Assembly (NCBI GenBank): GCA_016932965.1
Contig: JAFGBW010000081.1
Coordinates: 1-13,694, forward strand
From: Candidatus Auribacterota bacterium
GTDB lineage: Bacteria > Auribacterota > JAFGBW01
DNA: 13,694 nucleotides
Reading direction: 5' to 3'
In this document: positions 361 to 13,694 of the stretch, piece after piece
Numbering within the stretch: position 1 is the stretch's first letter
Layout of the letters: each line of letters opens with the position of its first letter
The notes under the pieces: model-generated
Database searches by the model: none
What the model was told of the DNA's origin: nothing
The model's input: only the letters and a program-made list of their open reading frames with translations
Position numbers and translations under genes: made by a program

Positions 361-1683
361 ATGGGGATTGAAAACTACTGTTATCATATTTTTGAATTGC
401 ATTCTGACAGATTTGATTATTTCTTTTTTGATTCTAGAAAATCCTCCGTTTGTACAAAACATTCTGTTCAAAAAAAACAACCAGGGGATTTTTTTTCCCT
501 GCTTGAAATCCATGATGATGAAAGAGTTGTTTTTCTGCTTCCCCGGGCTATGTTTATAGAGAAACAACTCCTCGTTCCATCCCTTCTTGATGATGAAACA
601 ATCAAAATGGCAAAGCTCCAGGCCATGAAGCTGGTTCCGTTTGTGGAAGAGGAAATTCTGACTTATCCCCATGTTTTTGAGAAACAGGAAAATGGTTTCT
701 CATCTGTTCTTTTATATGTTTTGGAAAAATCCAGATTATTACTGGAAATCCAGCCCTTTTTGACTGCAGGAATAGTTCCCGATAAACTCTTGATTCGGCC
801 TTTGATATTTCCATTATTGATTCAGGCTTTGATCCCTCATGAAGAACAAATAAATTGTTTTGTTTCCACTTATCCTGACCAGGTAGAACTTGGAATTTAT
901 GGAAGTTCCGGATTAAAATATTCTCGAAGTATTAAAGGATTACATCAAAATCCCAGCGAAAGCCGGTTGTTAATCAACGAGATCATTCGTTCTTTTCAAT
1001 ATGCCCAATTGAAACATGGACTTGAATACACCCGCAAGTGCTATCTGTTGGGAGAATTCAATGCGGTAGAACTTGACTATTTCAAACATGAATCCATTCA
1101 GTTTGTTCATTTTCCAATCTCTGATGAAAAAAGAATTTCTGTTCTGGCACAACACAACGAACCGTACCCGTTTGTCATAGAAGATGTTATAGCCAGAAAA
1201 AAGACAAAACAGGCTCAATTGATCTCATTAAGAGTCATCATGCTCTTTCTTTTTGGCTTTCTTGTTTATTTTGCGCGTTTAACAGTGGCTGAATATATGT
1301 TGCAAAATCAATTGATTTCTTTGAATCATGAAATCAAAAAGACAAAAGTCAAAGCCGAGAAAGCTCTTTCCCTCAAGGAACAGGTGGCAACTGCATGCAG
1401 TCACTATTCCACAAGTGATTGTTTTATTAAAGCCGTTACTGAATTATATCGGATTATACCCGGTTATGTTCAGTTGAGTCTGTTTCAGGTGAAAAATACA
1501 ATACAAATTATCATCAAAGGCACAACTCAAAAAGGCGTGACTGAACTGGTGGAAAAACTGGAGGGGTCCCCTGTTTTTCAGAATGTAGCCTTGATTTATC
1601 AGAACAAATTAACCACAGAAAATAATAATGCCATGGAATTTCATCTCTCCTGCGAACTCGAAAGTCAGGGGGATTCAAAATGA
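361..1683 (+). CDS. gspL: GspL-like type II secretion inner-membrane protein (PilM/PilN-like layout)
   Basis: This is probably the T2SS platform protein GspL, which ties the cytoplasmic assembly ATPase GspE to the inner-membrane complex. The 440-residue protein has the expected order. A cytoplasmic domain (about 1-280) of the actin-like GspL/PilM type includes a segment near 88-104 (LVPFVEEE) resembling the conserved PF-EE region of that family. One membrane helix follows at about 289-309, then a short charged coiled-coil stretch (314-345). A periplasmic domain (about 355-436) is consistent with the small ferredoxin-like fold. Two periplasmic cysteines, C346 and C354, could pair. It heads the cluster and its TGA overlaps the next ATG by four bases, a sign of translational coupling. 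The cytoplasmic domain is divergent, so a fused PilM-PilN of a type IV pilus-like system is the main alternative. Order and neighbours favour GspL. Confidence 0.75.
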   Translation: MGIENYCYHIFELHSDRFDYFFFDSRKSSVCTKHSVQKKQPGDFFSLLEIHDDERVVFLLPRAMFIEKQLLVPSLLDDETIKMAKLQAMKLVPFVEEEILTYPHVFEKQENGFSSVLLYVLEKSRLLLEIQPFLTAGIVPDKLLIRPLIFPLLIQALIPHEEQINCFVSTYPDQVELGIYGSSGLKYSRSIKGLHQNPSESRLLINEIIRSFQYAQLKHGLEYTRKCYLLGEFNAVELDYFKHESIQFVHFPISDEKRISVLAQHNEPYPFVIEDVIARKKTKQAQLISLRVIMLFLFGFLVYFARLTVAEYMLQNQLISLNHEIKKTKVKAEKALSLKEQVATACSHYSTSDCFIKAVTELYRIIPGYVQLSLFQVKNTIQIIIKGTTQKGVTELVEKLEGSPVFQNVALIYQNKLTTENNNAMEFHLSCELESQGDSK

Positions 1684-2219
1684 TTTTCATACGCATGAAT
1701 ACACGGGAAAAATTACTTTTTCAGATTGTCATTATTGCCGGACTTTCATGGCTGATTCTGTTTTTTTTCGTTTTTCCAGGTCAGGACAGAATAGCCCGTA
1801 TTAAAAAGGAGATTGAGGGAAAAAGATTAAAATTATTCCAATACCAAAATGCCATGAAAGAAGAAGGGACTCTTGAACAAAAGATGGCCGAGATAGGCCA
1901 GATACCCAGACTATCCGCATCAGAAGAGATAGAAAAATCAAAACTTTTAAAAGTCATAGAATCTGTTCAGCAGAAAATTCAGGGAATCCAGCTGCTGGCC
2001 ATGACGCCCGTTGAATCCGAAAAGCTGGATATAAACAGAAAATTGCTTGTTAAAATCGAGTTGGAAGGTACAATGGAAAATATAGTGCGTTTTATTTATG
2101 AATTAAAGGAAACACCTGAAAAAATCAATCTGGTCAACCTCCGTATTTCCTCTGAAAATATAGAAGGAGATAAACTTAGAGCTTCCTTCATAGTGGGACA
2201 ATTATTGACGGTTCAATGA
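1680..2219 (+). CDS. gspM: GspM/PilO-like inner-membrane secretion protein
   Basis: A small bitopic protein of 179 residues with a short cytoplasmic tail, one membrane helix (about 12-33), a charged coiled-coil region (about 35-75) and a C-terminal alpha/beta domain (about 84-178) that fits the ferredoxin-like fold of GspM and PilO. GspM partners GspL in the periplasm and stabilises it, so the position directly after the gspL-like gene supports the call. The start at 1680 has a good ribosome site (AGGGGG at 1667-1672). The in-frame ATG at 1695 has none. It overlaps both neighbours by four bases. Sequence conservation in this family is low and the assignment rests mainly on topology and context. 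PilO of a pilus-type system is the alternative. Confidence 0.7.
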   Translation: MIFIRMNTREKLLFQIVIIAGLSWLILFFFVFPGQDRIARIKKEIEGKRLKLFQYQNAMKEEGTLEQKMAEIGQIPRLSASEEIEKSKLLKVIESVQQKIQGIQLLAMTPVESEKLDINRKLLVKIELEGTMENIVRFIYELKETPEKINLVNLRISSENIEGDKLRASFIVGQLLTVQ

Positions 2220-2659
2220 AAATGAAAAAACGAAATGAGGGTTTTACTTTAATTGAAATCATGCTTGTCGTGATCATCATCGGCATTCTGGCAGGGATAA
2301 TCCTGCCCCGGCTTTCAGGTAAAACCAATGAAGCCAGAATCTCGGCCGCCAAGGCAGATATCAACGGGACTTTGAGCACTGCATTGGATCTCTATGAACT
2401 GGATACGGGAAAATACCCCTCAACAGAACAGGGACTTCATGCTTTACTTGAAAAGCCAGCGGATTCTTCTGTTCCGCAGAACTGGAAAGGCCCGTATTTA
2501 AAGAAAAAGCAAGTATTGAAAGATCCCTGGAGCAGGGAATATTTGTATGAATCCCCTGGAAAAAACAACCAGGATTATGATCTGGCTTCTGCCGGACCGG
2601 ATGGGAACATGGGTACGGAAGATGACATCACCAATTGGGATAATGACAGAAACGGATAA
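2216..2659 (+). CDS. gspG: GspG, major pseudopilin of type II secretion
   Basis: GspG is the main subunit of the periplasmic pseudopilus that drives substrates through the secretin. The 147-residue protein carries a short basic leader ending in glycine, then FTLIEIMLVVIIIGILAG. Prepilin peptidase would cut between G9 and F10, leaving the invariant glutamate at mature position 5 (E14). The globular part shows family hallmarks: the GKYPSTEQGL segment (65-74), the DPW motif (103-105) and the C-terminal calcium-loop signature DLASAGPDGNMGTEDDI (122-138) followed by NW. Length is normal for the family. The start overlaps the gspM stop by four bases and the end overlaps the gspA-like gene by 17. 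No prepilin peptidase is encoded in the window. This is the most secure T2SS call here besides the secretin. Confidence 0.96.
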   Translation: MKMKKRNEGFTLIEIMLVVIIIGILAGIILPRLSGKTNEARISAAKADINGTLSTALDLYELDTGKYPSTEQGLHALLEKPADSSVPQNWKGPYLKKKQVLKDPWSREYLYESPGKNNQDYDLASAGPDGNMGTEDDITNWDNDRNG

Positions 2660-3485
2660 TGACAGACCCAATCATTATTTTGGGAAATGGGGGCTAGTAA
2701 AAGACCCGTTTACCACTTCCCCTGACCCTGATTATTTATTTCCCTCCCATCAGCACCTGACTGTTTTAACCTGTCTGGAAATATCCGTCCGTTTAAGGCG
2801 AGGGGCCTGTGTTGTGCTGGGGGAAATCGGCACCGGAAAAACAACCCTTTGCAGGACGCTCATTCAAAAACTGGAGTCTGACCCTTCCATTGAAATTGCC
2901 TTATTACTTAATCCGCCTGATGGGGGGGGTAATTCGTTTTTATCAGCCTTATCCTCCCTGTATAGACTTCCTGTTCAAACAGTTGGGGAAACGTTTTCAG
3001 CTTTAAAGGATTATTTGTTTTATCACGGTGTTGAAAGAAATAAAACTGTGGTGCTCATGATTGATGAGGCTCAAAAATTGAACACAGAATCCATTGAACT
3101 GATCCGGACTCTTTTGAATTACGAAACGAATGAATACAAACTACTTCAGCTTGTTCTTTTTGCCCAATTGGAACTGAAGGACAAAATCAAACAACTTCCC
3201 AATTTTGAAGATCGTTTGAATATTAAAATTGAATTAAATCCGCTGAGTGTTGAAGAATGCGGGGAATTGATACAATTTAGATTATTAAAAGCCGGGTATG
3301 GCAATGAAGAACCGGTTTTTACCGATGATGCCATACGCGCCATTCATGAAATCACAGGCGGGTATCCGAGAAAAATCTGTATGCTCGCCCACAAGGCAAT
3401 GATGGAGATGGTCATGACTGAAGTCATGATTGCCGGTGAATCCCTGATCAGGCAGATCGGTGTTCATGAGGTTGTCCTGGCATGA
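2643..3485 (+). CDS. gspA: GspA/ExeA-type AAA+ ATPase, short soluble form
   Basis: An AAA+ ATPase of the ExeA/GspA family (also MshM-like). In Aeromonas, ExeA works with ExeB to insert the secretin through the peptidoglycan. From the preferred ATG at 2643 the protein has 280 residues and opens with the family-typical YFGKWGLVKDPF and TPDP-like SPDPDYLF segments. It has Walker A GEIGTGKTT (60-68), Walker B VVLMIDEAQ (136-144), a sensor-1-like stretch around 168-177, FEDRLN (188-193) with a likely arginine finger, and GGYPRK (239-244) as sensor 2. It ends after the AAA+ module. There is no membrane helix and no peptidoglycan-binding domain, unlike full-length ExeA of about 550 residues. The frame stays open upstream to an ATG at 2547, but those extra residues lie inside gspG and look unlike the family. 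The stop overlaps the next start by four bases. Confidence 0.87.
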   Translation: MTETDNDRPNHYFGKWGLVKDPFTTSPDPDYLFPSHQHLTVLTCLEISVRLRRGACVVLGEIGTGKTTLCRTLIQKLESDPSIEIALLLNPPDGGGNSFLSALSSLYRLPVQTVGETFSALKDYLFYHGVERNKTVVLMIDEAQKLNTESIELIRTLLNYETNEYKLLQLVLFAQLELKDKIKQLPNFEDRLNIKIELNPLSVEECGELIQFRLLKAGYGNEEPVFTDDAIRAIHEITGGYPRKICMLAHKAMMEMVMTEVMIAGESLIRQIGVHEVVLA

Positions 3486-4054
3486 AAAAATCCGTGCTTC
3501 CGGAAGAACGTCTGCTTGATTTGATTAAAAAGGCCGATCCGTTTCATCAAAATGTCCGGGATCATTCCGTGATTGCCGTTAAGGAAAATCCGGAACTGAA
3601 ACCGATACCCCGGATTGAATCCGAATTGCATGAGATTAAAAAGACCAAACGTTTTTTTTCTCCTTTTATCATTCTTGTTCTTGTGATTCTATCATCCGGT
3701 GTTGTTGTATTGTATTTTGTTAATAACCCATTTTTATCTTCACAAAAAGAACTTCAGTCCGAGTTCAAATCAGATGATTCCCCACAGGATTACAGGGAAT
3801 TAAAAAATGTTTCACCGAGACCGGTTGTTCCGGATATGGAAATATCTTACAATAAAATCCCTGCACCGGAATATCTCGCTTTAGGCGGGGTGATAGGGGG
3901 GGATAAACCTGCTGCCATTATTCAAAACAGGCAATCAGGGCAGAACACGACCTTAGAACAGGGAGACAATTTCATGGGTTACATTTTAACCAAGATTGAA
4001 AAAGGTCGTGTGACCTTTACGAAAGATAAAGAAATATTTACTCTGGATTTGTAA
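3482..4054 (+). CDS. gspB: GspB-like inner-membrane protein with periplasmic HR-type domain
   Basis: A 190-residue bitopic protein with a charged cytoplasmic N-terminus (1-57), one membrane helix (about 58-80), a polar linker (85-128) and a small C-terminal periplasmic domain (about 131-190). The domain resembles the GspB/PulB and GspC homology-region beta fold. Its position right after the ATPase and the four-base ATGA overlap suggest the ExeA-ExeB pair, in which the B protein is the membrane partner of the ATPase. From residue 132 to 188 it aligns without a gap with the same residue numbers of the next gene's product. Shared positions include L132, L134, G136, AII 145-147, GD 161-162 and VT 177-178. 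A second GspC-like or PilP-like protein would fit the sequence equally well, so the B label depends on context. Confidence 0.65.
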   Translation: MKKSVLPEERLLDLIKKADPFHQNVRDHSVIAVKENPELKPIPRIESELHEIKKTKRFFSPFIILVLVILSSGVVVLYFVNNPFLSSQKELQSEFKSDDSPQDYRELKNVSPRPVVPDMEISYNKIPAPEYLALGGVIGGDKPAAIIQNRQSGQNTTLEQGDNFMGYILTKIEKGRVTFTKDKEIFTLDL

Positions 4055-4056
4055 TC

Positions 4057-4626
4057 ATGCCCTTGAAACAGAATCAGTCTGAAGCTGCCCAATTTGATGA
4101 ATGGTTGAAGAATTCTTCAACTGGAATCCGGCTGGAAGAAATTATAAATCCTTTCCTTTATCCTTTTATTCACAGGATTGTTTTTTTGATTATTCTTTTA
4201 TGCGGGATCAGTCTGATCATCTTTGATCTGAAAACCTATTCCGGAAAAATGAAGGTTCTTCCGATTAAAACAGAAGATGATAAGGAAACTCCAGATTTAA
4301 AAGAAAAAGCTGTTCCTGTCAATTTCGGAGAAATTCTTGCAGTCATTCAATCCAAAACCATTTTTAAAGCTACCAAAATGATTCCTCCTCCACCGCCGCC
4401 TAAATCTTTTGAGCCCAAAGGGCCGACATTGGAGGAAAAAATAAGGTCTTTGACACTGATAGGGATATTGAATGAGAATCCCGTACAGGCTATTATTGAA
4501 TCCAAACAAAACCGGGAAGTATATTATATTAAAAGCGGAGATACCCTTCTGGACATGGAAGTTGTATCTATTGCACCGGGAGAAGTGACGTTACGTTATA
4601 AGGATGAAACAAAAATATTGAGGTGA
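4057..4626 (+). CDS. gspC: GspC-like protein, homology-region domain without PDZ
   Basis: GspC links the inner-membrane platform to the N-terminal domains of the secretin. This 189-residue protein has the matching layout: a cytoplasmic tail (1-38), one membrane helix (about 39-57), and a periplasmic linker with a run of six prolines (110-115). A homology-region domain (about 124-189) follows, beginning LEEKIRSLTLIGIL and containing the typical AIIES and SGDTL segments. It stops after that domain, so the C-terminal PDZ or coiled-coil domain of many GspC proteins is absent. That form occurs in some lineages. The gene starts two bases after the previous stop with no strong ribosome site, which suggests coupling to the upstream gene. 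Its place just before gspD supports the call. Confidence 0.77.
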   Translation: MPLKQNQSEAAQFDEWLKNSSTGIRLEEIINPFLYPFIHRIVFLIILLCGISLIIFDLKTYSGKMKVLPIKTEDDKETPDLKEKAVPVNFGEILAVIQSKTIFKATKMIPPPPPPKSFEPKGPTLEEKIRSLTLIGILNENPVQAIIESKQNREVYYIKSGDTLLDMEVVSIAPGEVTLRYKDETKILR

Positions 4627-4738
4627 ATGAATTGATCCCTCAGCAGGAAACTGCAGGGTATTTTCATGACCAAGCCCGACTTTACAGTATTGGAACTTTT
4701 TAAATTCTACAAATAATATTTATTGAGGAAATTTCAAT
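4627..4738 (+). promoter_or_regulatory. gspC-gspD intergenic region with candidate promoter and RBS
   Basis: This is the only sizeable gap in the secretion cluster. TTGGAA at 4690-4695 and TAATAT at 4714-4719, 18 bases apart, form a plausible but imperfect sigma-70 type promoter. A ribosome site GAGG at 4725-4728 lies ten bases before the gspD ATG. The implied leader would be very short, so the promoter is only a candidate. Confidence 0.35.
4637..4658 (+). terminator. Hairpin with GAAA loop between gspC and gspD
   Basis: CCCT (4637-4640), CA bulge, GCAG (4643-4646), loop GAAA, CTGC (4651-4654) and AGGG (4655-4658) form an eight-pair GC-rich stem with a two-base bulge and a GNRA-type tetraloop. 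TATTTT follows at 4659-4664. It starts ten bases after the gspC stop. It could be a weak terminator or an mRNA end-point setting different levels of gspD and the upstream genes. Confidence 0.45.
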
Positions 4739-6784
4739 ATGAAGTGTTTTTTATTTTCCGCCATATTCATCATTTTTCTATTCAATACGGCCTCCCTTTT
4801 TTCTCAGGAAATTCAGACTAAACCGGAACAGGCAAGAAGGGAAAAGAGTAATGATAAAGGCGATATGATTTCCCTGGAATTAAAAGACATCGATGTTGTG
4901 GAAGTCATTAAAATTCTTTCCAGAAAAGCCAAATTCAATATTGTCATCGGTTCCGGCGTTAAAGGAAGGATCACTTTATTTCTTAACGAGGTGAAATTGA
5001 AGGAGGCTCTTTTTATTGTTCTGGAAGCCGCTGATATAGCTTATACCGACAAGGAGGGAATTCTAACCCTCATGCCTGAAAAGGAATATGAATCCACTTA
5101 CGGCAGGGAATTTTACAACCATAAAAAACTGGTTTCATTTCCCATCCAATATGCAGTAGCAGCTGATATTGCCACTTCATTGAATAAACTGCTGCCAAAA
5201 ACCAAGATCATTGTGGATGAAAGAACCAATGTTTTGCTGGCTGAAGATTCTCCTGAGAACATTGAGGAAATCAGAAAAGCCATTGGTGAAATGGATCTGG
5301 AAATCATTACCAAGAACTACACCTTGAAACATTTGTCCGCCAAAAGGGCGGAAGACCTTATTAAGATGCTTATCGGCAAGAAGGGGGTTTATTATATAGA
5401 TACGAATATCAAGCAGGTAGTGATCAAGGATTTTCCTGAAAACGTTGGAAAAATATTATCGCTTCTTAAATCCCATGATATTCCGCCCAAGGTGATTTCC
5501 AAATCCTATGAATTGAGTTACGCGAAATTTGATGCCTTGGAGGCCAAATTAAAGCCGATTTTAACACCGGATATCGGTCAGATTGTTTCGGATGAAAGAA
5601 CCAATAAAATCATCGTGAATGACCTGGAATCGAATTTTGAAAAGATTGATAATCTTGTTTCAGAATACGACATAAAAGACAGGCAGGTTCTGATCGAGGC
5701 GAAAATCGTACAGGTGATATTAAACGACCGTTTCCAGCTGGGAATCAACTGGCAGACAGTCATTGAGCAACTGAACAATTCCAATCTTGGTTTGCGATTG
5801 ATGTCGGCGAATGAAATCGTCAAAGGTCAGGACCTGGTCGGTGAAGCCGGTTTTGCGCAATCCATTAATCGAATAGGTAAAATTCCTGACGATGCAAGAG
5901 TTCCCGCAGATACACAGACCACCACCATCACGACCAATATTGACGAAAAAGGAAAATCAACCACAACAAGCAATATGGTCCGGACAATTACCGAGACAAA
6001 TCAAGATACAACAACACCGGACGAAACCACGACTTCAACAATTTTGCCTTTCAACCAAAAAATTTCAGGTCCGTCGGAAGGCGGTGCCAGGATTGTGGCA
6101 ACAGGAAGCATTGGCGGCCATCAGTTTGAAAGCGTCCTGAATGCTTTAAAGTTGGTTGGAAACACCAAAGTCTTATCCAGCCCCAGGATCATTGCGATCA
6201 ATCAAAAGGAAGCGAAACTTTCCGTATCGAGTAAAGAGGCTTACGCCACTTCCACCGTATTGACCACAGCTACAGGCCCTTCCACGACATCTGAAAACAT
6301 TGCTTTTGAAGAAGTGGGTGTCATGCTGACCGTTACCCCGGCCATCAACAGGGACAATTTCATTACTTTAAAAGTAAAGCCCTCGATATCTTCAGTGACT
6401 TCATATGCCACAACGGCTTCAGGGAATAAGATTCCGATTGTTTCAAAACAGGAAATCGAATCCACCATTCAGGTCAAAGACGGCACCACGGTTGTTCTTG
6501 GCGGGCTTCATGAAACACTCACCGACAAGTCATCCAACGGAATCCCTTTTTTACAGGCTATTCCCCTTATCGGTTATCTTTTCAAAAGAGTAGACAACAG
6601 GATCAAAAACAGCGAACTGGTCATGTTTCTGACTCCGCATATCATCACGGGTGAAAAAAGTTTTTATGAGGAACAGGATGACAAAATTCAAGTCGGAAAA
6701 GGGGTTACAGAAGTTCTTGACGATGAGAACAAGGAGCCAAAGCCGGGCTTCTGGAAAAAATTAAAAAGAAAACTGAAAAAGTAA
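4739..6784 (+). CDS. gspD: GspD, type II secretion outer-membrane secretin
   Basis: GspD forms the multimeric outer-membrane channel through which folded proteins leave the periplasm. The 681-residue protein has a Sec signal peptide (about 1-22, cut before or near Q23) and an N0 domain (about 44-113). Three N1-type domains follow (about 129-186, 189-247 and 251-311), then the secretin core (about 313-637). Core landmarks are QVLIEAKIV (316-324), GINW (335-338), VLSSPRI (478-484), GTTVVLGG (582-589), GIPFLQAIPLIGYLF (601-615) and ELVMFLTPHI (626-635). A Thr/Ser-rich low-complexity stretch (about 390-436) is inserted in the core. The C-terminus is a basic tail, FWKKLKRKLKK, and not a recognisable pilotin-binding S domain, and no pilotin gene is nearby. 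The start is backed by GAGG at 4725-4728. The gene ends 25 bases from a convergent neighbour. Confidence 0.96.
   Translation: MKCFLFSAIFIIFLFNTASLFSQEIQTKPEQARREKSNDKGDMISLELKDIDVVEVIKILSRKAKFNIVIGSGVKGRITLFLNEVKLKEALFIVLEAADIAYTDKEGILTLMPEKEYESTYGREFYNHKKLVSFPIQYAVAADIATSLNKLLPKTKIIVDERTNVLLAEDSPENIEEIRKAIGEMDLEIITKNYTLKHLSAKRAEDLIKMLIGKKGVYYIDTNIKQVVIKDFPENVGKILSLLKSHDIPPKVISKSYELSYAKFDALEAKLKPILTPDIGQIVSDERTNKIIVNDLESNFEKIDNLVSEYDIKDRQVLIEAKIVQVILNDRFQLGINWQTVIEQLNNSNLGLRLMSANEIVKGQDLVGEAGFAQSINRIGKIPDDARVPADTQTTTITTNIDEKGKSTTTSNMVRTITETNQDTTTPDETTTSTILPFNQKISGPSEGGARIVATGSIGGHQFESVLNALKLVGNTKVLSSPRIIAINQKEAKLSVSSKEAYATSTVLTTATGPSTTSENIAFEEVGVMLTVTPAINRDNFITLKVKPSISSVTSYATTASGNKIPIVSKQEIESTIQVKDGTTVVLGGLHETLTDKSSNGIPFLQAIPLIGYLFKRVDNRIKNSELVMFLTPHIITGEKSFYEEQDDKIQVGKGVTEVLDDENKEPKPGFWKKLKRKLKK
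5906..6046 (+). repeat. Thr-rich low-complexity segment inside gspD
   Basis: Codons 390-436 of the secretin encode a stretch dominated by Thr, with Ser, Asn, Asp and Glu, including TQTTTITT, KSTTTS and TTTPDETTTS. The reading frame stays intact. It interrupts the secretin core between the GINW strand and the conserved second half. Confidence 0.7.
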
Positions 6785-6809
6785 ATATCCAATTTAATGG
6801 TCCGTTAAT

Positions 6810-8540
6810 TCATCTGAAAATACAAATCATGTTTTTCCCTATCAGGATCAAAAGAATCAATTGAATTAGAAAAGGAAGATACAGAAGGTATTTAATTTTG
6901 TCATATTTTCTGGCATTAAGAAGAAGTAAAGCCAAAAATGATCCGATAGCAATTGGAATAAACCAGAGATTATGACTTGAAAATGAGACATAAAACAAGG
7001 CTATACCCAGGGTAAATTCGATGATCTGAACTTTCAGGGAATTGCTTTTAAAATCCAAAAAACCGTTGTTCTGGATTGCCGTTTTATCCGTTTTGTCCCC
7101 TGTAATCGGAAAAAACGTCATCCCCGTAATCAGGTAAGAAATAATACTCAGGGTTGAAGACAGTGTTAAGGAAGTATAAATACCAGTTGAAACAAAAAGA
7201 TAATTCAGACATTTCATGGGTTGTTTCCTCAATTCCATGAAGGCAGGAATGACCGGGTAAAGAAGTCCCAGGGCAATCAAAACATAAAAGTCCGTGGTCC
7301 AGTGCATGTTATATCTTAATCCGGATAAATAATCAGTCACGTGTTTCCCTGCTGAAGCAACAGGCAGATTAAACATGGCTCCGGTGAGATTGAATGCCTG
7401 GAAGAAAAATGGAAGAAAAAAGGCTATCAGAAGAATAAAAAAAATAAACGGAGCGGACATCAGCATACTGAACCCCGATGCCAGCAGGTCCGCCTTTTCA
7501 AACCAGGGAATATTTTCCGAACAAATAAAATTTAAAAAGTTTTTTCTGAAAAATTCCGCAGTACCCCTGACCCATTTTTCATGGCGTTTCCGGAAAGCAG
7601 GATAATCTTGAGGTATATCCTCACCAGTCCAGACGTTTGCTGCAAGTATTCCCTGGTAACCGATTTCTCTTATCCTGGCTGAAAAAGCCAGATCTTCACT
7701 GACCACTTCGGGGAGGCCGTTGATTTTTTCCCAGACTTCCATTTTGATAAGCGCTGAATGTCCGTAAAACATCACAAATCCGGATGAGTTACGGTATGGC
7801 ATAAAATATTTCCAGTGAATGGAAATCTGCAGGGCCATGTCCGAGGCAAAAACCGAGGTATTTTTTTCAGAAGCACTGCAGCAGGCCTGGACAAAGCCTA
7901 TGGATTCATCCGCCTGAAAATATGGTAAAAGGGATGAAAGAAAATTTACAGGCAGAATACCGTCCGAATCGGACACGGCAAAATATTTAAAATCGTCATG
8001 AATCAGCCTCAGGGCGTTATTCATATTTCCAGCCTTGAATCCGGTTTTGTTTTCCCTTCTAATCACCTGAATTTTATTCCTATTGAAATCAGGCATCCTT
8101 GAGGGGATAACATCAGAAATAAACGCATCAATTTTCTTATGTCCGGCTCCCGGGCTGCTGTCATCCAATATAAAAACCTTGTAATCTGGATAATCCTGAT
8201 TAAGGCAGGAAAGACATGCTTCCTGATTAAAATCGTTTCTGGTCAGATATAAGAGCGCTATAGGAGGAAGGTATGAATTTTTTTCATTTATCGAAAAGGG
8301 ATTGATATGCAGGGGTGGTGGGATGTTATTTTTTGAAAACCTGGAAAATATAATGGCCAGAATATTATAGACCTCATAGAAAAAAAACAGATTAAAAAAA
8401 AGAACAAACAGGAGTATTCCCAGGAGGGAATACCAATTAGGTGCAATAAATATAAAAGAAAGAAGTCTCGGACTGAAATAAAGGGATACCAGACTGAACA
8501 GCCATAAAACGGTGACAGAAAAAACAGGACTTTTCCTCAT
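6810..8540 (-). CDS. Membrane-bound family 2 glycosyltransferase (cellulose synthase-like)
   Basis: A 576-residue inner-membrane GT2 enzyme, probably moving sugars from nucleotide donors into a polysaccharide or surface glycan. Two N-terminal membrane helices (about 8-30 and 36-62) precede a cytoplasmic GT-A domain (about 92-335). The domain shows DD at 126-127, a KAGNMNNAL segment (169-177), the DxD motif SDSDG (190-194), SED (281-283) as the likely catalytic base, and RHEKW (319-323) in place of the usual Q/RxxRW. Several further membrane helices follow (about 356-382, 417-435, 446-475, 504-542 and 549-570). There is no PilZ domain. The start at 8540 has no clear ribosome site, but an in-frame stop just upstream (8550-8552) leaves no earlier ATG. 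The acceptor and sugar cannot be read from the sequence. It faces the secretion cluster tail to tail and shares no operon with it. Confidence 0.87.
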   Translation of the reverse strand: MRKSPVFSVTVLWLFSLVSLYFSPRLLSFIFIAPNWYSLLGILLFVLFFNLFFFYEVYNILAIIFSRFSKNNIPPPLHINPFSINEKNSYLPPIALLYLTRNDFNQEACLSCLNQDYPDYKVFILDDSSPGAGHKKIDAFISDVIPSRMPDFNRNKIQVIRRENKTGFKAGNMNNALRLIHDDFKYFAVSDSDGILPVNFLSSLLPYFQADESIGFVQACCSASEKNTSVFASDMALQISIHWKYFMPYRNSSGFVMFYGHSALIKMEVWEKINGLPEVVSEDLAFSARIREIGYQGILAANVWTGEDIPQDYPAFRKRHEKWVRGTAEFFRKNFLNFICSENIPWFEKADLLASGFSMLMSAPFIFFILLIAFFLPFFFQAFNLTGAMFNLPVASAGKHVTDYLSGLRYNMHWTTDFYVLIALGLLYPVIPAFMELRKQPMKCLNYLFVSTGIYTSLTLSSTLSIISYLITGMTFFPITGDKTDKTAIQNNGFLDFKSNSLKVQIIEFTLGIALFYVSFSSHNLWFIPIAIGSFLALLLLNARKYDKIKYLLYLPFLIQLILLILIGKNMICIFR

Positions 8541-8622
8541 GCGCGGACATTAAATTAAAAAGTTGCAGAATAGAAGAGTTTTTTGCTAGTAATATAATCA
8601 TTCTTTTTTTGGGGGGTATTCC
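8541..8622. promoter_or_regulatory. Divergent intergenic region with TATAAT box
   Basis: The 82 bases between two diverging genes must hold both promoters. A perfect TATAAT lies at 8593-8598 on the plus strand, but no -35 box sits at normal spacing (TTGCAG at 8563-8568 is 24 bases away). A T run leads into GGGGGG at 8611-8616, which is the likely ribosome site six bases before the ATG at 8623. No clear minus-strand promoter was seen. Confidence 0.4.
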
Positions 8623-10254
8623 ATGAAACCTTCATGTAAACGTCTTATTTATATTTCAGTTATTACAGCTTCCTGCTTTCTCTGCGCCTATGTGGGACTG
8701 ATGGAGGGGATCAAGGCCGCCGGTTATCGTTACCTTGAGAAGAGAAAATTCGACAAGGCTCTAAAATCCTTTTCATATGCGGGGGATAAAAAAGGCCAGG
8801 GAGAGGCTTTTAACGGTCTGAAACAATATGACCCGGCAATCAGGGTTTTTGATGAGGTAAAAGATCATTCGGGACTGGGGAATTCTTATCTCGCCAAGGG
8901 TGAATACAACAAGGCATTGGAACATTACAGAAAAGCCGGTGACAAATCGGGTCTTGGTCTGGCGGCCTGTTCCAGGAGGAATTACGATAAAGCCATTGAA
9001 TATTTTACTGAAAATAATGACCGCTCCGGCCTTGGCTTGGCCTATCTGGGCAAATTCGATTATGACAGGGCGGAAGAATATTTTAAAAGCGCCAACGACA
9101 AATCAGGCCTGGGGTTGGTGGAATGCGCCAGAAAAAATTACGAAAAAGCCCTGGAATATTTCAGAGAATGCAATGATTTCAGCGGGCAGGGCAATGCCTA
9201 TCTGGGAATGGGGGAAACGGAAAAGGCAAGGGAATGTTTCATTAAAGCCAATGATCTGAACGGCCTTGGAAAAGTTCTTGTAGCGGAGAGAAAGTATGAA
9301 TCCGCCTGTCATGTGTTTGCCAACACGAAAAACTATTCAGGCCTGGGGACCGCGCTTATAGGACTCCACAGATACGACGAAGCCATCGCTCAATTCAGGA
9401 AAGTCAATGACCGTCAGGGCATAGGACTGGCTCAGATCGGGCAGAAAAACTATGATAAGGCTTTCCAATCATTCAGGCAGATCAATGACTTGCTTGGGGA
9501 AGCTCTTGTGTATATGGAAATCGACGATGTTGAAAAGGCGAAAGAAATTTTTCAGAGCAAAAACGACAGCTTCGGGCTGGGTTTGGCGGCTTTGGACAAA
9601 AGGGAAATAGAAGACGCGCTGACTTATTTTGCATCTGCAAATGATTATTCCGGCCTGGGGCTTGTGAACCTGGCTGTCCGGGACTTTCAGAGATCAGAGG
9701 AATACTTTAAAAAATACAATGACTACGACGGGCTTGGTTCATCATCACTGGAACAAAAAAATCTGAACAATGCCCTGGAATATTTTGAAAAAACCGGCAA
9801 CAAATCCGCCCTGGGGGATCTATATTACAAAATCCAGAATTATGACAAAGCCTTTAAAATATTTGACGAAGCGAACTTTTATTCAAAGGCCGCGGGTGCC
9901 CTGGCGGAAAATGACAAGCCTGAGGAGGCAATCCATTACGTTCAGGACAAATTAGAAAAGAACCCGGACCAGCCGGAACTATATGAGATTTTAGGCAGGC
10001 TTTATTCGGGAAAAATGGATCTTGAAAAAGCTGACATGACTTATCAGAAACTGGGGGAAAGGGAATTGTACCAGGCCAAAAGCCTGTTTTTAAGGGCGGC
10101 CTTGTATTTTAAATTTCAAAAATACGATGAAGCCGAGAAACTGATCGATGAACTGAAAATAAATTTTAAAAACAGTTCTTTTACTGAAAAGGCGGGCAGC
10201 CTGCTTCCGGCAATAGACATAATAAGGAAGTCGGGTTCGGTAAACATGGAGTGA
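8623..10254 (+). CDS. Membrane-anchored protein with fifteen 26-residue TPR-like repeats
   Basis: A 543-residue protein I cannot match to a named family. The N-terminus has a basic start and one hydrophobic helix (about 8-27) without a clear cleavage site or canonical lipobox, so it is probably a signal anchor with the body in the periplasm. Residues 31-420 are fifteen consecutive repeats of exactly 26 residues with consensus SGLGLAYLGKxxYDKALEYF followed by about six residues ending in ND plus one. The second half of each unit matches helix B of a TPR (YxKAxxYF). The first helix is about eight residues shorter than in a 34-residue TPR. The C-terminal part (about 421-520) changes to longer, more ordinary TPR-like units, for example KAAGALAENDKPEEAI and RAALYFKFQKYDEAEKLI. 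It is likely a protein-binding solenoid. The RHS gene follows on the same strand 66 bases later. A link to secretion or to the RHS protein is inference. Confidence 0.85.
   Translation: MKPSCKRLIYISVITASCFLCAYVGLMEGIKAAGYRYLEKRKFDKALKSFSYAGDKKGQGEAFNGLKQYDPAIRVFDEVKDHSGLGNSYLAKGEYNKALEHYRKAGDKSGLGLAACSRRNYDKAIEYFTENNDRSGLGLAYLGKFDYDRAEEYFKSANDKSGLGLVECARKNYEKALEYFRECNDFSGQGNAYLGMGETEKARECFIKANDLNGLGKVLVAERKYESACHVFANTKNYSGLGTALIGLHRYDEAIAQFRKVNDRQGIGLAQIGQKNYDKAFQSFRQINDLLGEALVYMEIDDVEKAKEIFQSKNDSFGLGLAALDKREIEDALTYFASANDYSGLGLVNLAVRDFQRSEEYFKKYNDYDGLGSSSLEQKNLNNALEYFEKTGNKSALGDLYYKIQNYDKAFKIFDEANFYSKAAGALAENDKPEEAIHYVQDKLEKNPDQPELYEILGRLYSGKMDLEKADMTYQKLGERELYQAKSLFLRAALYFKFQKYDEAEKLIDELKINFKNSSFTEKAGSLLPAIDIIRKSGSVNME
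8713..9882 (+). repeat. Array of fifteen 78-bp coding repeats (26 residues each)
   Basis: Fifteen units, in frame and without spacers or length changes, cover codons 31-420. Strongly repeated positions within a unit are G2, G4, A6, L8, Y13, A16, Y/F19-F20 and N24-D25. The DNA copies are well diverged, so the array is old or under selection for structure and is not a recent tandem duplication. Confidence 0.9.
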
Positions 10255-10308
10255 AAACGGCTGAAGAACCCAGAAAATTAAAAAAGACCAATAGAAAATA
10301 ACCAGAAA

Positions 10309-10320
10309 AGGGGAAGAACC
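10309..10320 (+). promoter_or_regulatory. Ribosome binding site of the RHS gene
   Basis: AGGGG at 10309-10313 lies seven bases before the ATG at 10321. It fixes the start of the partial gene that follows. The 66-base interval before it has no obvious terminator. Confidence 0.65.
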
Positions 10321-13300
10321 ATGATAAACAGATGTCTGAATGCATTAATATTAATGACAGGAGTATTTCTTCAGTTACCCTGCCAGGCGGCTTATGATGT
10401 GGATTTTGGCAAAGCAATGGGGATAACGCATGCCAATCCGTTTGCCACGGACGAGGTGGAGTACGCACCGCATGATCTGCTCGAAGCTGACAAGATGACG
10501 TACACGGCCGAGGACTTCAACATTGCCGGAAAAGGCCGCGGAGCAGATCTGAACCTATCCTTCATCCGGTATTACACGAACGAGAATTCAGCCAAGGGCG
10601 TATGCGGACACGGCTGGAGCACCTGTCTGGATGTCACTCTTCAGTTTGTAGGAATGCTGGTGGATGCGGTTATCCTTGATGAAAAAGGGGAGATGTTCAC
10701 GTTTTCCGTGAACGGGACCGACACCTGGGAGCCGAAATCCGAGCCCAACCCGCACCGGTTTTACAAGCAGCAAATCAATCCGGAAACCTTTTATTATATT
10801 TTTGAAAGAAAGTACGGAAATAAATATTATTTTGATTCAACCTTCCTGCTGCTGGAGAAAATCACGGACCGGAACGGAAACACGATTGTATACAACAGGG
10901 ACCCGGAAACCAATCTTATCACATCAATCGAGGACAATTCCGGCAGGCAGATCCAGTTCACCTATGATTCTTTCCGGAAAACCGTTCTGACCGTCACAGG
11001 GCCTGACAACAGGACGTTTCATTACTATTACAACTCCATTCTGGACAATCTCATCCAGGTGACAGATCCGGAAAACAATTCAACCTTCTTCGAATATACG
11101 CATTATAACGTTCACAATATCACAAAAATCATCACCCCCAACGGGAACTACCAGGCTTTTAACTATGGCATTGAAAAATTGAGCGAAATATTTCAGGGGC
11201 CTCATCTCATTTCAACGATTTCCTGTTTCGAGGCGGGAGAGATAAAGAACGTTCAGATGCAAAATCCTGTGGGATTCACGGCAACAAGAAACATTCTGAA
11301 AACGTATGATACCAATCCCCCGACCACCACCATCACCTCAACGGACAACACCGGCACTGAAACCGACATCCTGGATAAATACGGCTACGAATGGAAATAC
11401 ACGGATAAAAAGGGCAGGTACACCGTGATGACCAGGGACATCAGGGGAAACGTACTTTCCATGAGGAATGCCAAGGGATACACAACCACCCAGACATTTT
11501 CCGCGTTAAACAAACCCCTGGTCATGACCTCGCCGCTGAGCCTCGTTGAAAGATTTATTTATGATGCAAAGGGGAATCTCATCCAATACACCAACGGGGA
11601 GGGCGGGATTTATACGCTCTCATATGATGCAAACGGACTGCCGTTGACTTTCACCGATCCGAACAACAAAACCGAAACCTATGAATATGACAGTTACGGC
11701 AACATGACAAAAGTGACGGATTCGGAAACCGGCGTGAAGGAATTCTCCTATGATTTATATGGCAACTGCATCCGGGAAAAGGACGAACGGGGATATGAGA
11801 CTTTCTTTGAATATGACCGGATGAACCGGCTGAAAAAGACGACATTTCCGGATTTGTCCACCCGGGTTCTCACTTATGACGGAAACGGAAATGTTTTGAC
11901 GACTCAGGATGAAAACGGGAATGAAACGGTTTTCACCTATAACGAATGGGACAAAAAGGCCACGGTCAGGGACGCTGAAGGAAACATCCGGAGTTTCACC
12001 TATGATGCCATTGGACGCTTAAGCGCCGTGACGGACGGGAACAACCAAGTCTGGACCTATGAATATGATGTCCTGAACAATCTGACAAAGAAAACCTTTC
12101 CTGACGAAAGCTTCATCCGGTACGAATTTGACATTCAAAGTTCGAGCAAAATGGTTCCTTCCGCCGGGGTGAAACCGAAAAACGTCACAGATGCCATGGG
12201 GGCTGTGACAAACTTTCAATATGATGAGATGTACGCGCTGTTTAAAGAGACAGACGCCCTGCAGAAAACCACGACCTTCATTCACGACAGCCTGGACAGG
12301 ATCATCACTTACAGGGACAAACTGGGCAAAAACTACAACATGACGTACAACAAGCTGAACAAGGTGACCTCGGCCCAGAATCCTTTGGGATATGTGAGTT
12401 CCACAGTATACGACAAAATGGGCCAAGTACTGAGCAAAACGGACTCAAACGGAAAAACAGTCAGCTACACCTATGACGGGGAAGGCCGGGTCAAAACCGT
12501 GACCAATGCGCTCTCACAGACGGTTTCATACAGTTATGACGCAGAGGGGAACGTTATTTCCATCACAGATGCGAAAAACAATTCCGTGAATTATGAATAT
12601 GACAGCCGGGGAAGGGTCTCAAAGGAAAGGGATGCTCTGGGGAATGAATCGCGGGTGTTCTATGACAATGCCGGAAACATTGTCAGAAAAGTGAGGCCGG
12701 ACAACACGGAAGTGCTTTATACGTATTACAGAAACAATCTGTTAAAAACGATCAGTTACCCGGCGGCAGGCAAGACGGTTTCCTTTGAATATGACGGGAA
12801 CAACAATCCGGTAAAGATGACGGACTGGCTGGGTGAGACGAACTATGTTTATGACAGCCGGAACCGGCTGACAGAGATCACGGAACCAACGGGACGAAAA
12901 ATCCGCTACGAATATGACGCAAACGGGCGGAGGACCGCGTTAAAATTATTGAATGACGGCGTGAGTGAGGCATACAGACTGAACTACACTTACGACGTTT
13001 TAAACCGTCTGACCAGGATAGCGGACAGTTCCAATGCTTTTGTGAATTTCACCTATGATGCGCTTGGCAGAAGAATCCTTCAGGAATACTCCAACGGGGT
13101 GAAGGCTGCCTTTGTCTATAATGACATCAGCTTTTTAACACGGATCAGGGCCGTGAACTCAGGGAACGGTGTAATCATGCAGTTGGATTACACGCATGAC
13201 AAAGCGGGAAACATTTTAAGCGAAACTGAACAGGGCGGTCTGACCAAAACTTATTCCTATGACAGCATTTATCAGCTTCTGGGGGTGGGTTACTCAGACG

Positions 13301-13694
13301 GGACATCGTGTGCGTTTTCCTATGACGCAGCCGGAAACCGGCTTTCCAAAACAGAGAACGGGATCAGTACCACTTACACCTACAACAATCTGAACCAGCT
13401 GACCCAGGCTTTAGAAAACGGAGTCCAGACGGATTTTGTTTATGACCTGAACGGGAATCTCCTTCAGGAAACAAACGCAAACCAGATCATGACCTATGGG
13501 TACAACTTCCTGAACAAGGTTGCTTCAATCAATAAGGTGACGGCAACGGAGAATATCACCCTTTCCATGGTTTACAACTCCGAGGGAAAAAGAATCAGTA
13601 AAGCTTACTCCACGGGTGAAACCTGGAATTACGTTTATGACGGCCAGAACGTATTGCAGGAGCAAAACGGGGGCAATACTTCCTTCTACCTCCC
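10321..13694 (+). CDS. Exported RHS/YD-repeat protein, 3' end cut by the window
   Basis: The frame is open from the ATG at 10321 to the right edge, giving 1124 complete codons and no stop. A Sec signal peptide (about 1-23, ending QLPCQAA) is followed by an N-terminal RHS-associated domain of the DUF6531 type (about 45-200). Its family landmarks are AGKGRGADLNLSFIRYY (69-85) and GHGWS (96-100). A looser YD-like stretch continues to about 400. Canonical YD repeats then fill the rest, for example YEYDSYGNMTKVTD and FTYDAIGRLSAVTD. RHS repeats wrap into a beta-strand shell that often encloses a C-terminal toxin. Here the C-terminus, including any PxxxxDPxG-type core end and variable tip, lies beyond the window, so toxin or adhesin function cannot be judged. 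The signal peptide implies Sec export, and the T2SS 3.5 kb upstream is one possible route onward. Confidence 0.9.
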   Translation, partial: MINRCLNALILMTGVFLQLPCQAAYDVDFGKAMGITHANPFATDEVEYAPHDLLEADKMTYTAEDFNIAGKGRGADLNLSFIRYYTNENSAKGVCGHGWSTCLDVTLQFVGMLVDAVILDEKGEMFTFSVNGTDTWEPKSEPNPHRFYKQQINPETFYYIFERKYGNKYYFDSTFLLLEKITDRNGNTIVYNRDPETNLITSIEDNSGRQIQFTYDSFRKTVLTVTGPDNRTFHYYYNSILDNLIQVTDPENNSTFFEYTHYNVHNITKIITPNGNYQAFNYGIEKLSEIFQGPHLISTISCFEAGEIKNVQMQNPVGFTATRNILKTYDTNPPTTTITSTDNTGTETDILDKYGYEWKYTDKKGRYTVMTRDIRGNVLSMRNAKGYTTTQTFSALNKPLVMTSPLSLVERFIYDAKGNLIQYTNGEGGIYTLSYDANGLPLTFTDPNNKTETYEYDSYGNMTKVTDSETGVKEFSYDLYGNCIREKDERGYETFFEYDRMNRLKKTTFPDLSTRVLTYDGNGNVLTTQDENGNETVFTYNEWDKKATVRDAEGNIRSFTYDAIGRLSAVTDGNNQVWTYEYDVLNNLTKKTFPDESFIRYEFDIQSSSKMVPSAGVKPKNVTDAMGAVTNFQYDEMYALFKETDALQKTTTFIHDSLDRIITYRDKLGKNYNMTYNKLNKVTSAQNPLGYVSSTVYDKMGQVLSKTDSNGKTVSYTYDGEGRVKTVTNALSQTVSYSYDAEGNVISITDAKNNSVNYEYDSRGRVSKERDALGNESRVFYDNAGNIVRKVRPDNTEVLYTYYRNNLLKTISYPAAGKTVSFEYDGNNNPVKMTDWLGETNYVYDSRNRLTEITEPTGRKIRYEYDANGRRTALKLLNDGVSEAYRLNYTYDVLNRLTRIADSSNAFVNFTYDALGRRILQEYSNGVKAAFVYNDISFLTRIRAVNSGNGVIMQLDYTHDKAGNILSETEQGGLTKTYSYDSIYQLLGVGYSDGTSCAFSYDAAGNRLSKTENGISTTYTYNNLNQLTQALENGVQTDFVYDLNGNLLQETNANQIMTYGYNFLNKVASINKVTATENITLSMVYNSEGKRISKAYSTGETWNYVYDGQNVLQEQNGGNTSFYL
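11560..12132 (+). repeat. Run of ten YD motifs spaced exactly 21 residues
   Basis: From Y414-D415 to F603-D604 of the RHS protein, ten motif positions follow each other at exactly 21 codons (63 bp): residues 414, 435, 456, 477, 498, 519, 540, 561, 582 and 603. The last has EFD in place of YD. The regularity breaks at about residue 605 and resumes less strictly to the end of the window. Confidence 0.85.

What the first reader, a model, noticed from the sequence alone, without database searches (positions are those of the whole stretch)
8713..9882. Solenoid of fifteen exact 26-residue repeats, a shortened TPR-like unit
The sequence shows fifteen contiguous units of exactly 26 residues with no insertion or deletion. 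TPR units have 34 residues and Sel1 units about 36. Helix B looks like a normal TPR helix, while helix A is reduced to about ten residues with a glycine-rich start (SGLGLA). Strict length conservation in diverged copies implies a regular superhelix with its own geometry. I know of no named family with this period, but that is memory and not a search.
Basis: partly seen in the sequence, partly recalled or inferred. Interest (0 to 1): 0.75.

Follow-up and report, generated by a model that had tools for sequence, protein, structure and literature searches.

The report
Shortened-TPR solenoid partnered with Rhs toxins
This uncultured bacterium makes an exported coil-like protein from fifteen copies of a 26-residue miniature of the common 34-residue TPR repeat, and in related bacteria the same coil always sits beside, or is fused to, a giant Rhs toxin-type protein, so it is probably a dedicated arm for building or displaying such toxins.

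Summary
Observation confirmed: residues 31-420 of ORF 8623-10254 are fifteen contiguous 26-residue units without indels (lag-26 identity 0.327; shuffles 0.071 +/- 0.014). AlphaFold2 (pLDDT 89.7) gives helix 10, loop 3, helix 10, loop 3 throughout. The unit aligns to TPR positions 5-30, so 8 residues at the helix-B end/helix-A start are missing and both helices are short, not helix A alone. It is a new TPR variant, not a new fold class; canonical TPRs follow at 421-540. The 26 period holds in 280 of 294 unit-to-unit spacings in about 20 relatives (8-32 units) from Auribacterota and Omnitrophota. The main new result is context. Wherever the contig continues (18 of 18 loci) the solenoid is followed by, or fused to, an Rhs/YD-repeat protein; in the 17 type-A loci a catalytically intact GT2 glycosyltransferase lies upstream. 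Relatives show polymorphic-toxin hallmarks: Rhs-associated core, swapped tips, orphan tips and one Imm50 gene. Fused forms place a C39 peptidase with intact Cys/His/Asp, and an invariant EGG motif, between solenoid and Rhs. Best reading: a non-cytoplasmic scaffold dedicated to Rhs export or display. The mechanism is inferred; the window's own Rhs tip lies beyond the contig end.

The parts
8623..10254 (+). ORF of 543 aa: N-terminal membrane segment, 15 short-TPR units, canonical C-terminal TPRs
8623..8712 (+). residues 1-30: positively charged N-terminus plus hydrophobic segment (signal anchor or signal peptide; places the solenoid outside the cytoplasm)
   Evidence: Kyte-Doolittle mean 2.07 over 19 residues starting at residue 8; a similar N-terminal segment in every relative whose start is present
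8713..9882 (+). fifteen exact 26-residue short-TPR units (78 bp each, first unit 8713-8790, last 9805-9882)
9883..10251 (+). residues 421-543: transitional unit, then canonical full-length TPR helices with the Pro-containing linker restored (EKNPDQPEL)
   Evidence: helices 433-446, 451-463, 467-478, 481-497, 501-514; Pfam TPR_14, TPR_19 and ANAPC3
6810..8540 (-). GT2 membrane glycosyltransferase (CelA/MdoH/PgaC-like), divergently transcribed from the solenoid gene in this genome
   Evidence: Pfam PF13632 E=1.6e-16; NCBIfam CelA E=8.6e-16; DD126/127, D191xD193, E282 D283, R317xR319..K322 W323 invariant in 15 GT relatives
8541..8622 (.). 82-bp divergent intergenic region between the GT2 gene and the solenoid gene
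10321..13692 (+). Rhs/YD-repeat protein, truncated by the contig end; its Rhs core end, tip and any immunity gene are not seen
   Evidence: Pfam RHS_repeat E=3.4e-109, DUF6531 E=1.2e-6; open 3' end

Best explanation
The array is a superhelical scaffold made of a shortened TPR (26 residues: helix 10, loop 3, helix 10, loop 3). It is held at the outer face of the inner membrane by an N-terminal hydrophobic segment and continues into canonical TPRs. It is the second gene of a GT2 - short-TPR - Rhs cassette and works as the dedicated non-cytoplasmic assembly/presentation arm for the Rhs protein that follows it: its groove and C-terminal TPRs hold the Rhs protein during export and display. In Omnitrophota the arm is often covalently fused to Rhs through a C39 peptidase that probably cuts at the adjacent Gly-Gly motif to free the Rhs part. 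In Auribacterota (and some Omnitrophota) the two are separate proteins and Rhs carries its own signal peptide. Shown here by computation: the repeat, the modelled fold, conservation of the period, adjacency or fusion to Rhs, an intact GT2 active site, intact C39 residues in fused forms, swapped Rhs tips and one Imm50 neighbour in relatives. Inferred: location, binding of Rhs, cleavage, export by the type II secretion system and the role of the GT2.
For: Exact period; 10+3+10+3 helices at pLDDT 89.7, the same pattern where confident in the single-sequence model. 280 of 294 spacings in relatives are exactly 26, while Geobacter TPR hits to the same matrix space at 34/36. Rhs directly downstream or fused in 18 of 18 loci where the contig continues, GT2 upstream in 17 of 17 type-A loci. 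Five fused short-TPR/C39/Rhs reading frames. Rhs-associated core, swapped tips between recent duplicates, Imm50. In the duplicated cassette the solenoid is under stronger constraint (dN/dS 0.08; 96% identical) than the Rhs (core about 84%, last third 53% identical). T6SS sheath protein VipB absent from 11 of 11 carrier genomes, T2SS-G pseudopilin present in 11 of 11.
Against: No physical interaction, location or cleavage was tested. The relatives with organism titles are MAGs. The window's Rhs is cut by the contig end, so its tip and immunity gene are unseen. Type-B loci carry a C39-like domain that lacks the catalytic Cys/His and probably faces the cytoplasm. Some carrier genomes have other Rhs genes without a short-TPR gene (G610:C14 and C56, G535:C16), so the partner is not needed for every Rhs. 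The constant GT2 neighbour is not explained by a pure chaperone role.
Confidence: 0.55

Rival explanations
1. The solenoid serves the neighbouring GT2 synthase as a periplasmic polysaccharide scaffold, like the TPR parts of PgaA, BcsC and PelB or the Sel1 protein AlgK, and the Rhs protein is a surface protein attached to that glycan.
For: GT2 immediately upstream in all 17 type-A loci with intact DD, DxD, ED and R..KW residues; CelA/MdoH/PgaC are its best NCBIfam relatives; exopolysaccharide systems pair a GT2 synthase with periplasmic TPR scaffolds (PMC9384988).
Against: The fusions join the solenoid to Rhs, never to GT2. Type-B loci keep solenoid and Rhs but have no adjacent GT2 (L024, L028). 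No outer-membrane porin or polysaccharide-modifying enzyme was recognised in the cassettes, though not every neighbour was scanned.
Confidence: 0.2
2. The solenoid is itself an extended surface stalk or adhesin that carries Rhs outward, without chaperone or processing activity.
For: Fusion on the N-terminal side of Rhs; unit number varies from about 8 to 32, as expected for a length-setting spacer; polymorphic toxins generally put filamentous or repeat regions between the trafficking part and the toxin (PMC3482391).
Against: In more than half of the loci it is a separate protein with its own N-terminal hydrophobic segment and is not covalently joined to Rhs; canonical TPRs at its C-terminus suggest a binding surface.
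Confidence: 0.2
3. An ordinary TPR protein whose 26-residue spacing is chance or a local quirk.
For: Strong TPR_1/TPR_2 matches; the C-terminal part is canonical TPR.
Against: The spacing is conserved in 280 of 294 unit steps across two phyla and the model shows uniform 10-residue helices.
Confidence: 0.03

Closest known systems
Tetratricopeptide repeat (TPR, Pfam TPR_1/TPR_2 and others)
   Same: Two antiparallel helices per unit and the small/aromatic signature at TPR positions 7, 8, 11, 17, 20, 24 and 27 (unit L3, G4, Y7, Y/F13, A16, F20, A23); E=1.3e-34 to TPR_2
   Different: 26-residue period instead of 34; TPR positions 31-34 and 1-4 missing, both helices about 10 residues, Pro32 linker absent, a strongly conserved D/N at unit position 25 just before helix A
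Sel1-like repeats (AlgK type)
   Same: TPR-related helical hairpin solenoid, periplasmic examples known
   Different: 36-residue period; best Sel1 score 21.5 bits against cut-off 30.7
Eukaryotic IFT/coatomer/clathrin alpha-solenoids
   Same: Short helical hairpins with a GD..Ax..Y-like motif; IFT140/172 TPR model E=1.2e-7, just over its cut-off; IFT-A chains among Foldseek hits
   Different: From general knowledge these have irregular hairpin lengths and lie in the cytosol; here every unit is exactly 26 and the protein is exported; TM-scores to the query at most 0.36
Rhs/YD-repeat polymorphic toxin systems (PMC3482391)
   Same: Rhs/YD repeats, Rhs-associated core, variable tip, orphan tips, an Imm50 neighbour in a relative
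   Different: No T6SS sheath in 11 carrier genomes; the trafficking/presentation part is a short-TPR solenoid with or without C39, plus a GT2 gene, an arrangement not found in the papers searched
TPR scaffolds of synthase-dependent exopolysaccharide systems (PgaA, BcsC, PelB, AlgK; PMC9384988)
   Same: Exported TPR-class superhelix next to a GT2 synthase
   Different: No porin found in the cassette; the constant partner is Rhs; 26-residue unit

Membership tests
TPR superfamily | signature residues at TPR positions 7/8/11/20/24/27 | tested here: met
   TPR_2 E=1.3e-34 with residues 82-105 on profile 4-27; A16 97%, G4 81%, F20 80% in 160 units
TPR superfamily | two antiparallel helices per unit stacked into a solenoid | tested here: met
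   AlphaFold2 helix pairs in every unit, pLDDT 89.7; handedness and pitch not measured
canonical TPR | 34-residue period with helices of about 14 residues and Pro at 32 | tested here: not met
   period 26, helices of about 10; the canonical form returns only after residue 432
Sel1-like repeat | 36-residue-class unit scoring above the Pfam cut-off | tested here: not met
   21.5 bits against 30.7
Pfam TPR_4 (PF07721, model length 26) | match of the window protein to this model | tested here: not met
   absent from the 25 families listed for the window protein (E up to 1); E=0.003 in one relative, below cut-off. The model is a trimmed TPR, not a description of a 26-residue period (own knowledge)
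known solved solenoids | close global superposition of residues 31-420 | tested here: inconclusive
   Foldseek TMq at most 0.36; best VIA rows cover the canonical TPRs at about 390-540; repeats superpose poorly as wholes and the array was not folded alone
Rhs polymorphic toxin system (neighbour protein) | YD/RHS repeats in the downstream protein | tested here: met
   RHS_repeat E=3.4e-109 in the window
Rhs polymorphic toxin system (neighbour protein) | Rhs-associated core, variable tip and immunity gene | tested here: inconclusive
   met in relatives; in the window the gene is cut by the contig end
synthase-dependent exopolysaccharide TPR scaffold | GT2 synthase with intact catalytic motifs | tested here: met
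   invariant DD, DxD, ED, R..KW in 15 GTs
synthase-dependent exopolysaccharide TPR scaffold | outer-membrane porin in the same system | tested here: inconclusive
   none recognised among the neighbours scanned; not all neighbours were scanned
C39 double-glycine peptidase | catalytic Cys/His/Asp in the window protein | tested here: not met
   the window protein has no C39 domain; fused Omnitrophota relatives keep C, H and D

The most novel reading that the evidence does not exclude
A previously undescribed Rhs toxin export/presentation system of Auribacterota and Omnitrophota: a GT2 enzyme, a solenoid of strictly 26-residue short TPRs whose unit number sets its length, and a C39 self-cleavage step at a Gly-Gly site that releases the Rhs shell, operating without a type VI apparatus.
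Probability: 0.3. Interest if true: 0.8.

Novelty: new variant of a known kind. Interest (0 to 1): 0.62.

Why it matters
A natural solenoid that keeps the TPR hydrophobic signature but drops one helical turn from each helix, invariant in length over up to 32 units, is a clean test of what sets TPR geometry and a ready template for repeat-protein design. Its fixed link to Rhs proteins points to a delivery or display route for Rhs toxins in bacteria that lack a type VI system, which bears on how uncultured Omnitrophota and Auribacterota interact with other cells.

Tried and rejected
A literature search for 26-residue TPR-like repeats found nothing relevant. The window protein has no meaningful PADLOC match (weak TPR only). 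One IMG/VR scan gave a single weak relative (L137), in which the unit matrix found no run of two or more units. Forty genome-contig hits in Geobacter and other bacteria were rejected as relatives of the array: they are TPR proteins, and those that could be measured space at 34/36. G055, a hit in another phylum, reads as an ordinary TPR protein by eye. The viral structure library gave only generic TPR/Sel1 hits. A Nature Microbiology study of Omnitrophota (PMC10066038) mentions giant proteins but not TPR, Rhs or toxins in its main text. I considered Ntox24 for the L135 tip from memory, but no Pfam or NCBIfam tip model matched, so it is not claimed.

Full report
Observation. The ORF at 8623-10254 (+, 543 aa) holds fifteen contiguous 26-residue units at residues 31-420 (window 8713-9882) with no indels. 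Self-identity peaks only at lags 26, 52, 78 and 104; lag-26 identity is 0.327 against 0.071 +/- 0.014 for 2000 shuffles (maximum 0.118). Units are 15-65% identical (mean 34%); DNA identity averages 47%, and Tandem Repeats Finder finds nothing. The array is therefore old and its period has been kept by selection on length.

Anatomy of the unit. From 160 units in relatives the consensus is SGLGLAYLGKRDYDKALEYFKKANDK, with A16 97%, Y/F13 84%, G4 81%, F20 80%, D/N25 94%. Pfam TPR_2 matches at E=1.3e-34 in one register (residues 82-105 to profile 4-27). By this register the unit is TPR positions 5-30; the eight missing residues are 31-34 and 1-4, where helix B ends and the next helix A begins. AlphaFold2 with nine relatives gives mean pLDDT 89.7, pTM 0.76, and helix 10, loop 3, helix 10, loop 3 in almost every unit; the single-sequence model agrees where it is confident. 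So both helices lost about one turn each, and D25 lies just before helix A, an N-cap-like position (inference). After residue 432 helices return to 12-17 residues and the Pro-containing linker reappears (EKNPDQPEL): the C-terminal part is canonical TPR.

Comparison with known structures. phmmer against PDB sequences hits designed consensus TPRs (E=8e-17) and the OGT TPR domain. Foldseek finds TPR, SKI, PAF1C and IFT-A solenoids with query TM-scores of at most 0.36; the best VIA-align rows lie mostly on the canonical TPRs at about 390-540. This does not show that the array has no solved counterpart: it was not folded and searched alone.

Relatives. The nearest named relatives are Candidatus Auribacterota and Candidatus Omnitrophota MAGs. 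Among the genomes searched, hits at E<=1e-10 occur in three Auribacterota genomes of one order, the window's own included, and hits at E<=1e-15 in 8 of 384 Omnitrophota genomes. Across these proteins 280 of 294 unit-to-unit spacings are exactly 26; most others are 52 (a weak unit missed) or the step into canonical TPR. Unit numbers run from about 8 to 32 and differ by whole units. As a control, the same matrix run on Geobacter and other TPR hits gives 34/36 spacing. Long Omnitrophota arrays also show a two-unit (52-residue) alternation.

Neighbours. In the window the solenoid gene lies 66 bp before an Rhs/YD-repeat gene (10321 onward, cut by the contig end) and 82 bp from a divergent GT2 glycosyltransferase gene. 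Two layouts are seen elsewhere. Type A: GT2, then short-TPR, then Rhs, mostly spaced by a few to 80 bp. Type B: a LamG-domain protein, then short-TPR plus a membrane segment plus a C39-like domain, then an Rhs-like protein (L024, L026, L028). Counting about 20 loci, Rhs follows or is fused wherever the contig continues (18 of 18), and GT2 is upstream in all 17 type-A loci (in L025 with one small ORF between). Fifteen full-length GT2 proteins keep DD126/127, D191xD193, E282D283 and R317xR319..K322W323, the catalytic pattern of processive-type GT2 enzymes (own knowledge).

Fusion and peptidase. In five Omnitrophota loci (L129-L133) solenoid, C39 domain and Rhs form one reading frame of 1380 to 2452 aa, some cut by contig ends. 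Their C39 domains keep the putative Cys (N-[RF]-CGP), His and Asp, and an invariant EGG[TIW]TK[GN]D[PQ]G motif follows, before the Rhs part. C39 peptidases of bacteriocin transporters cut after Gly-Gly (own knowledge), so self-release at this site is a testable inference. In type-B proteins the Cys and His are replaced, so those domains are probably inactive.

Toxin evidence in relatives. Rhs proteins of several cassettes end in the Rhs-associated core TIGR03696. Two recently duplicated cassettes of one genome (L035 and L022/L039) keep the solenoid at 96% identity (dN 0.025, dS 0.32) and the Rhs core at about 84%, but the last third at 53%, with tips after the core that do not resemble each other. 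Orphan Rhs ends lie downstream in L039, L131 and L135, and in L135 the gene after the Rhs is an Imm50 immunity protein, E=5.3e-15. No T6SS VipB was found in 11 carrier genomes, while a T2SS-G pseudopilin is present in all 11; in the window a T2SS-like gene set lies next to the cassette. These points make T2SS export plausible but do not show it.

Mechanism and rivals. The most economical reading is a membrane-held scaffold outside the cytoplasm that receives and presents its partner Rhs protein, with the peptidase-containing fusion as the one-polypeptide version. Fusion, strict adjacency and retention of the solenoid-Rhs pair in type B favour Rhs over GT2 as the direct partner. A role in GT2-dependent polysaccharide export, as in PgaA/BcsC/AlgK systems (PMC9384988), remains possible because GT2 is constant in type A. 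A passive length-setting stalk is also possible. None of these was tested physically.

Novelty. Fold class: TPR superfamily, known. Unit length and strict period: not found in Pfam, NCBIfam, PDB sequences or the papers searched. Cassette: Rhs systems are well described (PMC3482391), but the GT2 / short-TPR / C39 / Rhs arrangement was not found in the papers searched. Verdict: new variant of a known kind.

Noticed in passing
window 361-6784 (+): T2SS/type IV pilus-like gene set: PilN-like, PilO-like, GspG pseudopilin, ExeA-type AAA ATPase, two small membrane proteins, GspD secretin.
   Followed up: partly
window 2547-3485 (+): The listed start of the AAA ATPase lies inside the GspG gene; the real start is probably near 2643 (MTETDND...).
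   Followed up: no
L026 (G000:C47) with L003/L027 (G000:C100); L028 (G000:C209): The window genome carries two more, type-B cassettes; C100 and C47 overlap and seem to be one gene split by assembly, and most of C100 reads as N.
   Followed up: partly
L025:3935-5230; L136:1-2053: Solenoid genes broken by in-frame stops (one in L025, two in L136): pseudogenes or MAG errors.
   Followed up: no
L131, residues 27-858 of ORF 4667-12025; L031: Long arrays alternate two unit types (SGLSxAYCGKxxFDxAxxYAxxAND / SALGHAYCGKxxFDxAIEYFxxAND), a 52-residue super-repeat.
   Followed up: partly
L039:14823-16496; L131:3402-4295; L135:12627-13013: Orphan Rhs C-terminal cassettes downstream of the main Rhs genes, as in tip-swapping Rhs loci.
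   Followed up: partly
L024:25-7029; L028:8126-11866: Large LamG-domain proteins (2334 and 1246 aa) directly upstream of type-B cassettes.
   Followed up: no
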